DNA of 64,000 nt, from the NCBI GenBank assembly GCA_001897355.1, contig MKST01000011.1, positions 730,103 through 794,102 on the forward strand, in the 5' to 3' direction. This DNA is from Solirubrobacterales bacterium 67-14 (GTDB taxonomy: Bacteria > Actinomycetota > Thermoleophilia > Solirubrobacterales > 70-9). Below the pieces are notes generated by a model that was not told the DNA's origin, searched no databases, and worked only from the letters and a program-made list of their open reading frames with translations. Of the stretch, positions 2,290-63,026 are shown in pieces; the stretch's first letter is position 1, and the number at the start of each line of letters is the position of its first letter. The position numbers and the translations under genes are program-made.

Positions 2290-2897
2290 TGGAGATCGCC
2301 CAGTTGCTCGGCACCGTCGTCTTCGCCGTTTCCGGCGTGGTCGCGGTGGCCGAACGCCGGCTGGACTGGTTCGGCGTCCTGGTGGTCGCCGCGGTGACGG
2401 CGGTCGGGGGCGGCACGATGCGGGGCCTGATCCTTGGCCACGCCCCGGTCTTCTGGATCGAGGACAACAAGTACATCTTCACCGCGCTGGTCGGCGGGAT
2501 CCTGGCGATCCCCCTGGTCCGTCACTTCGGGCGGGACCACGAGGAGTTCGAGAACAGCCTGGTCCTGCTCGATGCCATGGGCCTCTCCCTCTTCGCGGTG
2601 ACCGGCGCCCAGGTCACTCTCGACCTCGGGTTCGACGCGCCGACCGCGGTCATCTGCGGCATCCTGACCGGAGTCGGCGGTGGCGTGATCCGCGACCTCC
2701 TCGCCGGCCAGCATCCCTTGATCCTGCGCAGCGACATCTACGCGACCGCGGCCCTGGCCGGGACCGGCCTCTACGTGGTCCTGGTCGACACCCTCTCGGT
2801 CGCCCAGGCGCCGGCGATGGCGATCGGGATGATCGTGATCTTCCTGTTCCGCATGGTCGCCTACCGCCGGCACTGGAGACTCCCCTCCCTTAACTAA
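2289..2897 (+). CDS. TRIC-like / UPF0126 (YicG/YadS) membrane protein
   Basis: A 202-residue polytopic protein with about seven hydrophobic segments. It shows the two internally repeated glycine-rich signatures of the family, VGGGTMRGLILG in the first half and VGGGVIRDLLAGQHPLILR in the second. Prokaryotic relatives fold as TRIC-type trimeric cation channels; glycine transport has also been suggested for some members. The start ATG overlaps the def stop (TGATG). Two hairpins follow the stop codon. Substrate is not predictable from the sequence. Confidence 0.85.
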   Translation: MEIAQLLGTVVFAVSGVVAVAERRLDWFGVLVVAAVTAVGGGTMRGLILGHAPVFWIEDNKYIFTALVGGILAIPLVRHFGRDHEEFENSLVLLDAMGLSLFAVTGAQVTLDLGFDAPTAVICGILTGVGGGVIRDLLAGQHPLILRSDIYATAALAGTGLYVVLVDTLSVAQAPAMAIGMIVIFLFRMVAYRRHWRLPSLN

Positions 2898-2900
2898 AGG

Positions 2901-2980
2901 GCGGTTCGGTCTCCGCCGAACCGCAACGGAAACCCGCCGGCCCACAGAAACAAATGACGGATGGGCCGGCTCCGGCGGGT
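2901..2980. terminator. Two hairpins between convergent genes
   Basis: A perfect 9-bp stem (GCGGTTCGG at 2901-2909, CCGAACCGC at 2916-2924) is followed by a longer imperfect structure at about 2932-2980. There CCCGCCGG pairs with CCGGCGGG, and GGCCCA can pair with TGGGCC. It lies between the TRIC-like gene on plus and the DUF3618 gene on minus, so it probably ends transcription from both sides. There is no long T tract. Confidence 0.55.
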
Positions 2981-5750: not shown

Positions 5751-5826
5751 GCCCCTCCCGACCATTATTTCGTGTGATCGGGAGGGGCGGGTTTCAATCG
5801 GAGGTCCGGCGAAGACCGGACCGACT
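5751..5826 (+). repeat. 76-nt two-hairpin element, copy C
   Basis: Stem 1 is GCCCCTCCCG (5751-5760) with CGGGAGGGGC (5779-5788) and an 18-nt loop beginning ACCATT. An 11-nt linker GGGTTTCAATC follows, then GGA and stem 2, GGTCCGG (5803-5809) with CCGGACC (5816-5822) around a 6-nt loop, then GACT. Copies A (38355-38430) and B (62923-62998) share every length and the conserved single-stranded bases, but stem 2 here has different sequence with pairing kept. It lies between nitrilase and acylase genes, antisense to both. Confidence 0.88.
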
Positions 5827-37534: not shown

Positions 37535-38305
37535 CTACGGCTCGATCGTGCGACCAGGCTCCGGTGAGACCTTTTCGCGCAGCGCCTGCCGGGCTCCACG
37601 CCGACCCTTCTCGTCCAAGGTCGTGTACATCGTCTTGACCTGATCGAAGACCGTCTTCGCGCAGTCGAGCTGCTGCTCGCGGCTCGGCTCGGCGACCACC
37701 GGGAAGCTCATCGGCTCGCCGAACTGGACCGTGACCTTCGGCAGCACCAGCTTCTTCCACTTGCGCACCGAGGCCGATCCGTGAATCGCGACCGGGACCA
37801 CGGGCACCCCGTTCTCCAGCGCGATCCGGCCGATCCCGGGCTTGGCCTCGCCGAGGCCACCGGTCCGGGAGCGCCCACCCTCCGCGTAGACCAGGACGCA
37901 GCCGCCGTTCTCGAGGATGATCCGGGCGGTCTTGAAGGCCTCTTCGTCCTTGTGGCCGCGCCGCACCGGGAACACGCCGCCGTATTTGAAGATCGAGCGG
38001 AGGACCGGCGGCTTGAACAGCTGGGATTTCGCCATGAAGCGGATCTTCCGGCGCAGGTAGACCCCGGCGAAGAAGTGGTCCATGTTCGAGAAGTGATTCG
38101 GGGCCAGCAGGACCGGCCCCTCGGTCGGGACGTTCTCGGTCCCGATCGCGCGGGTCCGGTAGAGGCCGACCGCGATCGGCGTGAGGATCGCCCGGACCGC
38201 TTCGTAGACCCAGTTCGGTTCGTGGTTCCGCGACCGCTCGTGAATGTGGTCGAAGTACTCGGCGGGCTTTTCGTCTCTGTACTTCTGCGGCTTGATCTCA
38301 GACAT
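37535..38305 (-). CDS. 1-acyl-sn-glycerol-3-phosphate acyltransferase (PlsC family)
   Basis: A 256-residue membrane-associated acyltransferase that adds the second acyl chain in phospholipid synthesis. The catalytic block I is APNHFSNMDHFF (H-x4-D) and block III is YAEGGRSRTG; a further Gly-Ile-Gly-Arg-Ile region (PGIGRIALENGVPVVPVAIH) completes the PlsC pattern. Normal length. It ends directly against the MBL gene's stop with no spacer. Upstream lies the 76-nt element copy A and then glpK on the same strand, a plausible glycerolipid grouping. Confidence 0.88.
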   Translation of the reverse strand: MSEIKPQKYRDEKPAEYFDHIHERSRNHEPNWVYEAVRAILTPIAVGLYRTRAIGTENVPTEGPVLLAPNHFSNMDHFFAGVYLRRKIRFMAKSQLFKPPVLRSIFKYGGVFPVRRGHKDEEAFKTARIILENGGCVLVYAEGGRSRTGGLGEAKPGIGRIALENGVPVVPVAIHGSASVRKWKKLVLPKVTVQFGEPMSFPVVAEPSREQQLDCAKTVFDQVKTMYTTLDEKGRRGARQALREKVSPEPGRTIEP

Positions 38306-38354
38306 GGGCTAAACGGTCGTTACCCCAATCCGCCCCGGCGGTTACACGGGCAGA

Positions 38355-38430
38355 GCCCCTCCCAACCATTGGCTATTTCAAGTGGGAGGGGCGGGTGTCA
38401 CATGGAGGGCGGGTCCGACCCCGCCCGACT
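38355..38430 (+). repeat. 76-nt two-hairpin element, copy A
   Basis: Stem 1 is GCCCCTCCCA (38355-38364) with TGGGAGGGGC (38383-38392) around an 18-nt loop beginning ACCATT. The linker is GGGTGTCACAT, then GGA, stem 2 GGGCGGG (38407-38413) with CCCGCCC (38420-38426) around a 6-nt loop, then GACT. It lies between glpK (stop 38435) and plsC (start 38305), both on minus, so it is antisense to them as written. See copies C (5751-5826) and B (62923-62998). Confidence 0.9.
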
Positions 38431-38434
38431 CCTG

Positions 38435-39901
38435 TTAAGTGGCCCAGCTGCGGGATCGCTCAAGGGCGCGGTGCCACTCGCTGAGCAACGACTCAGCCTG
38501 GTCGCGGCTCATCTTCGGTTCGTAGCGGGCGGCCGGCTTGTACATGCCGCGGATCTGGTCGATTGACCAGGTGCCGCTGCCGAGGCCGGCCAGGCAAGCG
38601 GCGCCGAAGGCCGTGGTTTCGCTGATTTCCGGGATCTCGACCGGCACCCCGAGCAGGTCGGCCTGGAACTGCATCAGCCACTTGTTCGCCACTGCGCCAC
38701 CGTCGGCCCGCAGCACCCCGAGCTGCTCGCCAGAGGCCGCCTCCTGGGCCCGGACCGCATCCACCGTCTGGTAGGCGATCGCTTCCAGCGCGGCGCGGGC
38801 GAGGTGGGCCCGGGTGGTGCCGCGGGTCAGCCCGACCATGGTGCCGCGGGCGTAGGGATCCCACCAGGGCGAGCCGAGCCCGGTCAGGGCCGGCACGAAG
38901 TAGACCCCGTCATTCGAGTCGAGCGAAGCGGCCAGCGGCTCGGTCTCCCGGGCGTCCTTGATGATCCCGAGGCCGTCACGCAGCCACTGGACCGCGCTGC
39001 CGGTGACGAAGACAGATGCCTCCAGGGCGTAATCGACCTCGGTCGGCCGGTCGTCACCGCCGCCGACCCCCCAGGCGATCGTGCCGAGCAGCCCTTCTCC
39101 CGGATCGGGCTTTTCCTGGCCGGCGTTGAGCAGGACGAAGCTGCCGGTGCCGTAGGTGTTCTTGGCCATGCCGGGCTGGTGGCACATCTGCCCGAAGAGC
39201 GCGGCTTGCTGGTCGCCGGCGATCCCGGCCACCGGCACCTCGCCGCCGAAACCGGAGGTGGTGCCGAAGAGTCCGGCCGAGGGCCGCACCTCGGGCAGCG
39301 AACCCGGGTCGACCCCGAAGACCGAACAGAGCTCCGGATCCCAGGTCAGTTCGCCCGTGTCGAAGAGCATGGTCCGCGAGGCGTTGGTCAGGTCGGTCAC
39401 GTGCTCCCCGCACATCCGGTGGACCAGCCAGGAATCGATCGTGCCGAAGACCGCCCGCTCCGCCCCCTCGACATTGCGGGTGAGCCACTCGATCTTGGTC
39501 GCCGAGAAGTACGGGTCGAGCACGAGGCCGGTCTTCTCGCGGACCAGCGGTTCGACTCCTTCCGCTCGTAGCTCGTCGCAGCGTGCTGCGCCCCGCCGGT
39601 CCTGCCAGACCAGGGCGCGGTGGAGCGGCTTGCCGGTCTCCGGATCCCAGGCGACCACGGTCTCGCGCTGGTCGGTGATCCCGATCGCATCGAGGTCCGG
39701 GCCGCTGATCCCGGCACCGGCCAGGGCCCGGGCGGCCACGCCCCAGGTGGTTTCCCAGATCTCCTCGGCATCGTGTTCCACCCAGCCGGGCTTGGGGAAG
39801 TGCTGCCGGAACTCGGCGTAGCCGCGGCCGACGACCTTGCCGGAACCGTCGAAGACGAGTGCGGTCGAGCCGGTCGTGCCCTGGTCGATCGCGAGGATCA
39901 T
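38435..39901 (-). CDS. glpK: Glycerol kinase
   Basis: A 488-residue FGGY-family kinase that phosphorylates glycerol with ATP. It starts MILAIDQGTTGSTALVFD and shows ITDQRETVVAWDPETGKPLH, WQDRR, AGIAGDQQAALFGQ, and the C-terminal LRADGGAVANKWLMQFQADL with GTGSFVLLNAG. Length and motif order are normal. The ATG at 39901 overlaps the stop of the upstream glycosyltransferase (ATGA). PlsC downstream uses the glycerol-3-phosphate branch, so the neighbourhood fits glycerolipid metabolism. Confidence 0.95.
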   Translation of the reverse strand: MILAIDQGTTGSTALVFDGSGKVVGRGYAEFRQHFPKPGWVEHDAEEIWETTWGVAARALAGAGISGPDLDAIGITDQRETVVAWDPETGKPLHRALVWQDRRGAARCDELRAEGVEPLVREKTGLVLDPYFSATKIEWLTRNVEGAERAVFGTIDSWLVHRMCGEHVTDLTNASRTMLFDTGELTWDPELCSVFGVDPGSLPEVRPSAGLFGTTSGFGGEVPVAGIAGDQQAALFGQMCHQPGMAKNTYGTGSFVLLNAGQEKPDPGEGLLGTIAWGVGGGDDRPTEVDYALEASVFVTGSAVQWLRDGLGIIKDARETEPLAASLDSNDGVYFVPALTGLGSPWWDPYARGTMVGLTRGTTRAHLARAALEAIAYQTVDAVRAQEAASGEQLGVLRADGGAVANKWLMQFQADLLGVPVEIPEISETTAFGAACLAGLGSGTWSIDQIRGMYKPAARYEPKMSRDQAESLLSEWHRALERSRSWAT

Positions 39902-62882: not shown

Positions 62883-62922
62883 ACCCAATCTACGGATGGC
62901 TTCGCCATGTGTCACATAAGTA

Positions 62923-62998
62923 AGTCGGGCGGGGTCCGACCCGCCCTCCACGAGACACCCACCCCACCCACTGGAACAAAGGAATGGTTGGGTAGGGC
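62923..62998 (-). repeat. 76-nt two-hairpin element, copy B
   Basis: Read on minus: stem 1 GCCCTACCCA (62989-62998) with TGGGTGGGGT (62961-62970), including two G-T pairs, around an 18-nt ACCATT loop. The linker is GGGTGTCTCGT, then GGA, stem 2 GGGCGGG with CCCGCCC around a 6-nt loop, then GACT. A T-A pair of copy A is an A-T pair here. It lies in the gap between the rubredoxin stop and the sigma-factor start, on the same strand as both. Confidence 0.9.
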
Positions 62999-63026
62999 TC
63001 CGGTGGGCGGCGCTTCGGGGTTAGCC

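What the first reader, a model, noticed from the sequence alone, without database searches (positions are those of the whole stretch)
38355..38430. A 76-nt two-hairpin element recurs three times with fixed geometry
Copies at 38355-38430 (+), 62923-62998 (-) and 5751-5826 (+) all have a 10-bp stem, 18-nt loop, 11-nt linker, GGA, a 7-bp stem, 6-nt loop and GACT, exactly 76 nt each. Conserved bases fall in the loop start (ACCATT), the linker (GGGTnTC), GGA and GACT; the stems vary. Three copies in 64 kb in gaps between unrelated genes suggests many per genome. The orientation relative to genes differs (antisense to its neighbours twice, sense once), so it is not simply a cis-regulator of one gene class. 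It could be a REP-like element (GGA(G) at the foot of a hairpin resembles the REP GTAG/GGAG foot), a small RNA, or a two-part terminator. I know of no named family with this layout.
Basis: seen in the sequence. Interest (0 to 1): 0.88.

Follow-up and report, generated by a model that had tools for sequence, protein, structure and literature searches.

The report
Mobile two-hairpin repeat at gene ends
A roughly 100-base DNA repeat that folds into two hairpins is scattered in about ninety places through this actinobacterial genome, mostly beside the ends of genes, and it is present at a given place in one species and missing in the next, so it behaves like a tiny jumping element rather than a gene switch.

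Summary
The three 76-nt copies are as described, and a fourth lies at 2896-2973 (-). A covariance model finds 88 matches at E<=0.001 in the 3.2-Mb genome, a few of them truncated. Both stems covary strongly: 15 of 17 pairs change on both sides and 99.4% of cells pair. The family occurs in 9 of 18 genomes of one genus, own genome included, and in 0 of 43 other relatives; in a class sample, 7 of 399 genomes and 1 of 128 genera. No Rfam family matches it. Of 88 elements, 37 lie between convergent genes and 8 between divergent ones, against 9 and 36 of 103 background spacers. At all 28 loci compared, some sister species lacks a recognisable element (81 of 100 stretches). The best reading is a non-autonomous mobile DNA hairpin element, REP-like in behaviour. 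It is not a REP by definition: no GTAG/CGTC tag as a rule, and no Y1 (RAYT-type) transposase in the 9 element-bearing genomes. The mobilising enzyme is unknown, and no target-site duplication is detectable overall.

The parts
38352..38433 (+). Copy 1 (the finding): whole modelled element
   Evidence: R1 101.2 bits; between the stop of an FGGY-family kinase gene (glpK by eye) and the start of an acyltransferase gene, antisense to both
38355..38364 (+). Copy 1, stem 1, 5' arm (10 bp)
   Evidence: sequence; family covariation
38365..38382 (+). Copy 1, 18-nt loop beginning ACCATT (family: aCCATY)
38383..38392 (+). Copy 1, stem 1, 3' arm
38393..38406 (+). Copy 1, linker GGGTGTCACAT plus GGA foot (family: GGGTTnnncTTGGA)
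38407..38426 (+). Copy 1, stem-loop 2 (7 bp, 6-nt loop)
38427..38437 (+). Copy 1, GACT tail running into GTTA; on the other strand the TTA at 38435-38437 is the TAA stop codon of the FGGY-family kinase gene
62920..63001 (-). Copy 2, between a rubredoxin gene's stop and a sigma-70-family gene's start, sense to both
   Evidence: R1 96.7 bits
5748..5829 (+). Copy 3, between a penicillin-amidase-family gene and a carbon-nitrogen-hydrolase-family gene, antisense to both
   Evidence: R1 96.7 bits
2896..2973 (-). Copy 4, not in the finding: 9-bp stem 1, another stem-2 type without GGA/GACT, between convergent genes
   Evidence: 40.4 bits with R1, 66.6 bits with R2 (locus L109); folding

Best explanation
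The repeat is a non-autonomous mobile DNA element of about 100 bp, spread inside one genus of Solirubrobacterales (the name is inferred from named contigs that match the same genomes). Shown here: a two-hairpin unit; hairpins kept by compensatory changes; 88 matches at E<=0.001 in this genome; a strong preference for, or tolerance at, gene 3' ends; presence/absence differences between sister species; elements in the same spacer of different species sometimes in opposite orientation and not each other's closest relatives. Inferred: the folded single strand is what an enzyme recognises, and the element is copied or moved in trans by an unidentified or lost transposase acting on single-stranded DNA hairpins, as is known for REPs and IS200/IS605 ends. 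In half of the copies the 3' end carries TTA (82 of 164), which reads TAA on the other strand, so an insertion into the last codons of a convergent gene can supply a new stop codon; that would make gene 3' ends safe landing places. Any effect on transcript ends is taken as secondary.
For: Copy number. Covariation in 15 of 17 pairs in the own genome and 11 of 17 in elements from other genomes; both alignments were fitted to the model, so they lean towards the structure. Across 167 unique elements G-T pairs outnumber A-C pairs 35 to 7 on the element strand (p 1.5e-5), pointing to that strand as the folded one (model scoring may favour this). Genus-restricted. 81 of 100 orthologous stretches at 28 loci without a recognised element, 19 with one; 69 and 19 within the element-bearing species; all 28 loci have an empty-looking allele there. 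Opposite orientation in the same spacer at three loci: L033 (+ in four relatives, - in one), L060 and L026. In 20 comparisons of same-spacer elements none was the closest relative: 1 to 81 of 88 own paralogues were closer (the L010 and L002 pairs fell out through de-duplication). 80 of 88 elements have a gene's 3' end on at least one side; convergent 37 of 88 against 9 of 103 background. TAA stop in 30 of 43 abutting convergent genes against 33 of the remaining 250. Four head-to-head pairs with 40-45 nt between them. No target-duplication register among 140 single elements, as single-strand chemistry would predict.
Against: No transposase was tied to the element: none of four Pfam transposase families matches in the own genome, and no autonomous copy was seen (150 of 1047 candidates scored). 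The closest paralogues are at most 96% alike, median 88%, so no very recent move is shown. Some loci hint at a 6-13 bp duplication (9 bp at the UbiA-family gene of L029; overlaps of +8 to +13 in 7 comparisons at 4 loci), which would speak for another chemistry; most other comparisons are negative. Empty-looking sites in diverged relatives can be deletions or decayed copies; a few hold remnants. Folding of copy 2 is not better than chance (24 of 200 shuffles as good).
Confidence: 0.72

Rival explanations
1. A host-selected 3'-end device: a bidirectional terminator or transcript-end stabiliser that serves convergent genes, kept by the host's benefit.
For: 37 of 88 copies between convergent genes against 9 of 103 background spacers, 8 divergent against 36; copies 1 and 3 fold on both strands.
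Against: No T-tract in the flank consensus on either side; terminator scan 0 at the lead copy (one copy only); no recognised element at the same gene ends in 81 of 100 stretches from related genomes; conserved loop and linker sequence that a terminator does not need.
Confidence: 0.15
2. A MITE of a classical DDE transposon that makes a target-site duplication and has terminal inverted repeats.
For: A 9-bp direct repeat flanks the L029 copy while G010 holds one copy of that stretch; overlaps of +8 to +13 in 7 comparisons at 4 loci; 11 of 164 elements with a repeat score of 6 or more and the left end at -6 to -10 against 4.4 expected, two of the 11 caused by neighbouring element pieces; four of seven tests on all or part of the elements reached a register that at most 1 of 60-100 shuffles matched, at differing registers.
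Against: No clear excess of direct repeats over shuffled flanks among 89 own copies (3 of 7 bp or more against 1.4 expected, but 6 of 5 bp against 12); none at any register in 140 single copies (39 to 48 of 60 shuffles as high); the one subset signal that I read by eye was driven by a few loci; no end-to-end complementarity beyond shuffles; no Transposase_mut, DDE_Tnp_1 or Transposase_20 match in the own genome.
Confidence: 0.13
3. A true REP family mobilised by a RAYT that was lost or is missing from these draft assemblies.
For: Same kind of genomic behaviour; a purine-rich foot ending AG and a CT after hairpin 2, which could be read in the REP cleavage model (passages of PMC8266576); the element-bearing drafts are 73-96% complete; GTAG foot at hairpin 1 in 2 of 167.
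Against: 0 of 9 element-bearing genomes has a Y1_Tnp match; the one of 18 genus genomes with a match carries no element; no GTAG or CGTC tag as a rule; two hairpins per unit.
Confidence: 0.1
4. A trans-acting small RNA or cis-regulatory RNA family.
For: Strong covariation and conserved unpaired bases.
Against: No consistent orientation: tandem copies 27 antisense and 16 sense (p 0.13); no promoter-like site at the lead copy (one copy only); no Rfam match; mostly not retained at orthologous loci; few G-T pairs (35 of 2686 cells).
Confidence: 0.05

Closest known systems
REP elements / BIMEs / REPINs with RAYT transposases
   Same: High copy number, extragenic, hairpins, some inverted pairs with short spacers, preference for gene 3' ends (recalled for REPs), no evident target duplication.
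   Different: Two different hairpins per unit joined by a conserved 14-nt linker; 17-18 nt loop; no GTAG tag as a rule; no RAYT found; stem types mix (89 stem combinations among 167 elements).
CGTC-tagged REPs (passages of PMC3733652)
   Same: Palindromic repeats that, according to that paper, apparently lack a dedicated transposase.
   Different: No CGTC tag; length and two-hairpin layout differ.
Non-autonomous IS200/IS605 derivatives with a hairpin near each end (layout recalled)
   Same: One hairpin near each end, single-strand recognition plausible, no overall target duplication.
   Different: No Y1 transposase in the element-bearing genomes; no fixed target tetranucleotide seen outside the 5' boundary.
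Small intergenic repeats such as MIRU, ERIC, BOX, RUP (recalled)
   Same: About 100 bp, intergenic; MIRU can overlap neighbouring stop and start codons (recalled).
   Different: Not compared by sequence here; recalled only.

Membership tests
REP (GTAG or CGTC super-families) | Palindrome of 20-40 bp with a terminal GTAG or CGTC tag | tested here: not met
   Hairpin-1 foot AGAG 73, GGAG 67, TGAG 16, GTAG 2 of 167; hairpin-2 foot TGGA 79, GGGA 39 of 167 and tail GACT 131 of 167, no GTAG or CGTC among the 12 commonest of either; the definition is from the abstract and passages of PMC3733652
REP (GTAG or CGTC super-families) | RAYT (Y1_Tnp) gene in the genome | tested here: not met
   PF01797: 0 of 9 element-bearing genomes, 1 of 18 in the genus; the control rang in 6 of 14 genomes. 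The paper says CGTC repeats lack a dedicated enzyme, so this bears on GTAG REPs
REP (GTAG or CGTC super-families) | High copy number, extragenic | tested here: met
   88 matches at E<=0.001; 84 of 89 overlap a called gene by no more than 10 nt
MITE | Terminal inverted repeats | tested here: not met
   5' flank against 3' tail no more complementary than shuffles: 5 of 30 shuffles as good, z -0.2
MITE | Target-site duplication | tested here: inconclusive
   Single loci and subsets suggest one; no overall signal
IS200/IS605-derived element | Y1 transposase in the genome | tested here: not met
IS200/IS605-derived element | Fixed target tetra- or pentanucleotide beside the left end (recalled) | tested here: not met
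   Information content at most 0.07 bit at -18 to -30 (10-bp type) and at most 0.15 bit at -20 to -30 (9-bp type); assumes that the boundary is where conservation stops
Intrinsic terminator | GC hairpin followed by a T-tract | tested here: not met
   0 in 38250-38500 (one copy); flank consensus without T-run
Any Rfam family | Score above the gathering threshold | tested here: not met
   0 matches in the window; in 7 further loci one match, not on an element; in 5 loci at E<=1 two weak matches, neither on an element
Small RNA | Discrete transcript | not testable with these tools
   No RNA-seq available; promoter scan 0 at one copy

The most novel reading that the evidence does not exclude
A new kind of miniature mobile element whose unit is two unlike hairpins with a fixed linker, spread by an enzyme outside the known REP/RAYT and common IS families, that uses the 3' ends of genes as landing sites and often carries its own stop codon, which makes such landings harmless.
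Probability: 0.3. Interest if true: 0.72.

Novelty: new variant of a known kind. Interest (0 to 1): 0.52.

Why it matters
It would be a REP-like repeat population without the enzyme that defines REPs, in a bacterial class for which my six library searches listed no such repeat. Its natural presence/absence contrast among sister species makes it a good test case for how hairpin repeats spread without a visible transposase and whether they alter transcript ends. It also warns that covariation with many scattered copies need not mean a regulatory RNA.

Tried and rejected
Rejected: (a) a pseudoknot between the ACC of loop 1 and the GGGT linker, or an outer stem between flank, linker and tail: duplex energies no better than shuffled partners. 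(b) Integron attC-like ends (GTTAAG resembles a GTTRRRY core, recalled): 5' ends do not complement 3' ends beyond shuffles. (c) Solo hairpins or a long copy holding a transposase: a hairpin-1-only model gives no new place in the own genome; its hits are R2 hits, three of them truncated copies, plus three weak echoes on the opposite strand of known copies (150 of 1047 candidates scored). Exact-stem hairpin-2 units with GACT outside elements, in 82 own loci and the window: three printed, of which two are double-counted elements and one belongs to a split copy. (d) Insertion bias to one replication strand: the element strand has positive local GC skew in 50 of 89, no clear bias. (e) Plasmid, phage and viral sources: 0 matches (one pattern or one copy as query). 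(f) A target duplication as a general feature: not supported overall. Apparent signals on the way: 11 of 164 against 4.4 expected at -6 to -10, 9 after two artefacts are taken out; the subset with GGTG/GATG ends reached a register matched by 1 of 100 shuffles, the subset 'other' 0 of 100 (its register lies at the element's own ends), motif-aligned ends 0 of 60 and 1 of 60, while all elements together and the TTAT and GTTAA subsets did not stand out; reading the first subset showed a few loci driving it.

Limits: gene calls come from a simple codon-usage caller of mine, not a standard tool; the background spacers are from the same loci and the window; own-genome counts are lower bounds because only 150 candidates were scored per search, 75 per genome and 11 per genome; some loci overlap, so the 293 stop codons may count a few genes twice, and '33 of 250' is got by subtraction. 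Gene names beyond the Pfam families (glpK, CtaB, thioredoxin reductase, DPM synthase, superoxide dismutase) are by eye.

Full report
What is there. The three stretches are 76 nt each and fit the stated layout without gaps. Within the window the 48 invariant positions occur together only there. A covariance model from these three copies (R1) gives 101, 97 and 97 bits and a fourth copy at 2896-2973 (-) at 40 bits. In the whole genome (12 contigs, 3.23 Mb, 95% complete) R1 finds 78 matches at E<=10 (150 of 438 candidates scored); a second model from 80 aligned hits (R2) finds 92 at E<=1, 88 of them at E<=0.001 (150 of 4573 candidates scored). After removing overlaps I worked with 89 own-genome elements and 167 unique ones across the genus.

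Anatomy. Conservation begins at about -17 (10-bp type) or -19 (9-bp type) before the modelled start and ends about 12 nt after stem 2. The order is: a weakly conserved 5' part ending C..C.RRC; RGAG; stem 1 (10 or 9 bp) with a loop that is 17 or 18 nt in 159 of 167, beginning aCCATY; linker GGGTTnnncTTGGA; stem 2 (7 bp); GACT (131 of 167); a short end that contains TTAA or TTAT in 82 of 164. Stem sequences vary: 50 distinct stem-1 and 30 distinct stem-2 readings, among them 4 and 7 elements with shortened or missing arms, in 89 combinations. Covariation is strong: own-genome alignment A3 has 15 of 17 pairs with changes on both sides, 186 such cells against 50 in shuffles, 99.4% paired. Elements from other genomes give 11 of 17 pairs and 99.0%. 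These alignments were fitted to the model, which favours the structure; with partners slid by 1-3 columns only 38-60% of cells pair. G-T pairs are rare (35 of 2686 cells) yet outnumber A-C pairs (7), so the element strand is probably the one that folds. As DNA, copy 1 (5 of 200 shuffles as good on the element strand) and copy 3 (0 of 200) fold better than most shuffles; copy 2 does not (24 of 200), and its minimum fold, as DNA and as RNA, uses another pairing for hairpin 1. No pairing between flank, loop, linker and tail was supported.

Where it sits. With my own gene caller, of 88 elements with genes on both sides 37 lie between convergent genes, 43 between tandem genes (27 antisense, 16 sense) and 8 between divergent genes; 80 of 88 have a gene's 3' end on at least one side. 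Background spacers of 20 nt or more in the same loci and the window: 9 convergent, 58 tandem, 36 divergent; chi-square p about 1e-8. Where the 3'-side gene is convergent (64 elements), its stop codon is on median 2 nt from the modelled 3' end. Among 43 such genes that end within -6 to +9 nt, 30 stop with TAA, against 33 of the remaining 250. At the lead copy the TTA of the element end is the stop codon of the FGGY-family kinase gene (glpK by eye): this genome reads ACT TAA where G001, G007 and G012, which have no element there, read GTG TAA.

Who has it. Nine of 18 genomes of the genus, own genome included; none of 43 other relatives (75 candidates scored per genome). Hit numbers differ widely: 75 in G000 and G012 (the ceiling of that search), 59 in G001 and G015, 38, 22, 20 and 9 in four others, a single one in G014. 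Seven of 399 genomes and 1 of 128 genera sampled across the class (11 candidates per genome). In the named collection an exact pattern hits 29 stretches: 26 in Solirubrobacterales MAGs, 2 in one Actinomycetota MAG, 1 at the end of a contig binned as Hyphomicrobiales. Viral contigs, phages and plasmids: none.

Mobility. For 28 own loci I compared 100 orthologous stretches: 19 hold an element and 81 hold none that the models recognise; within the element-bearing group (G014 not counted) 19 and 69; each of the 28 loci has such an empty-looking allele there. Clear empty sites are those at the FGGY kinase, the UbiA-family gene, the thioredoxin-reductase-like gene and many others. Some 'empty' stretches hold remnants (for example G010 at L038). 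In three spacers (L033, L060, L026) the element has opposite orientation in different species. In 20 printed comparisons, elements in the same spacer of another species were never the closest: 1 to 81 of 88 own paralogues were closer. This looks like repeated insertion into the same kind of place. Nearest own paralogues are 61-96% alike, median 88%, so the spread is not very recent. A target duplication is unresolved: the L029 copy is flanked by a 9-bp direct repeat and 7 comparisons at 4 loci give overlaps of +8 to +13, but there is no clear excess over shuffled flanks in 89 copies and none at any register in 140 single copies; subset signals are told under Tried and rejected.

Mechanism. No mobilising enzyme was found. 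The own genome lacks matches to Y1_Tnp, Transposase_mut, DDE_Tnp_1 and Transposase_20; all four profiles rang in control genomes. Among the other element-bearing genomes only G007 (Transposase_mut, DDE_Tnp_1) and G010 (DDE_Tnp_1) have matches; element-free G003 and G004 have some too. Other transposase families were not searched. I therefore infer, but have not shown, that folded single-stranded DNA is the substrate of an unidentified enzyme, as with REPs, where the E. coli enzyme needs the GTAG foot and cuts at CT (passages of PMC8266576). The AG foot and the CT after hairpin 2 could be read in that model; this is only an analogy.

Comparison with print. Searches of the held library listed no description of this repeat or of such repeats in Thermoleophilia. 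Passages seen: PMC3733652 (REPs tagged GTAG or CGTC; no hit for GGAG, Actinobacter, Conexibacter or Solirubro), PMC12306157 (three Actinomycetota genomes in the passage shown; no hit for Thermoleophil or Solirubro), PMC2267715 (high-GC entries Corynebacterium and Mycobacterium in the passage shown; no hit for Solirubro or Rubrobacter), PMC6006769 (no hit for four actinobacterial terms). Other titles were seen only in listings. The library lacks most subscription papers, so absence there is weak evidence.

Verdict. A real, strongly structured, genus-restricted and probably mobile repeat; a new variant of the known kind 'miniature hairpin elements'. It is more than a chance repeat and less than a new regulatory RNA.

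Noticed in passing
L005, L021, L024, L033 (about 1380-1700 in each): Four head-to-head inverted pairs, each of a 10-bp-type and a 9-bp-type element, with 40-45 nt between them; by eye the spacer halves resemble the 5' parts of single elements, as in BIME/REPIN pairs.
   Followed up: partly
L072:1690-1849 (+): A c-di-AMP riboswitch (RF00379, 76.9 bits) directly beside an inverted pair of elements in G015.
   Followed up: no
L115 (G015, FGGY-kinase locus): The kinase reading frame appears to run into the element and stop inside it, so that element sequence would code for the protein's last residues.
   Followed up: no
L186 (G015, superoxide-dismutase-like locus, name by eye): Hairpin 1 is followed by a different GC hairpin with a T-rich tail (terminator-like), and a hairpin-2-like piece lies further downstream.
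   Followed up: no
L159:1-69 (contig JAFKJW010000054.1): An element at the very end of a contig binned as Hyphomicrobiales; mis-binning or mis-assembly seems likelier than transfer.
   Followed up: no
L078:1501-1581 (-), genome G014: A single diverged element in a genus member whose proteins stand further from the own genome than those of the element-rich species; possibly an old or transferred copy.
   Followed up: partly
own genome G000: No match to four common transposase families in a 95%-complete genome that carries some ninety repeats.
   Followed up: yes
L026 (G000) and its G015 orthologue L202: The same spacer holds the element in opposite orientation in the two species; the G015 copy follows directly on a changed gene end.
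   Followed up: no
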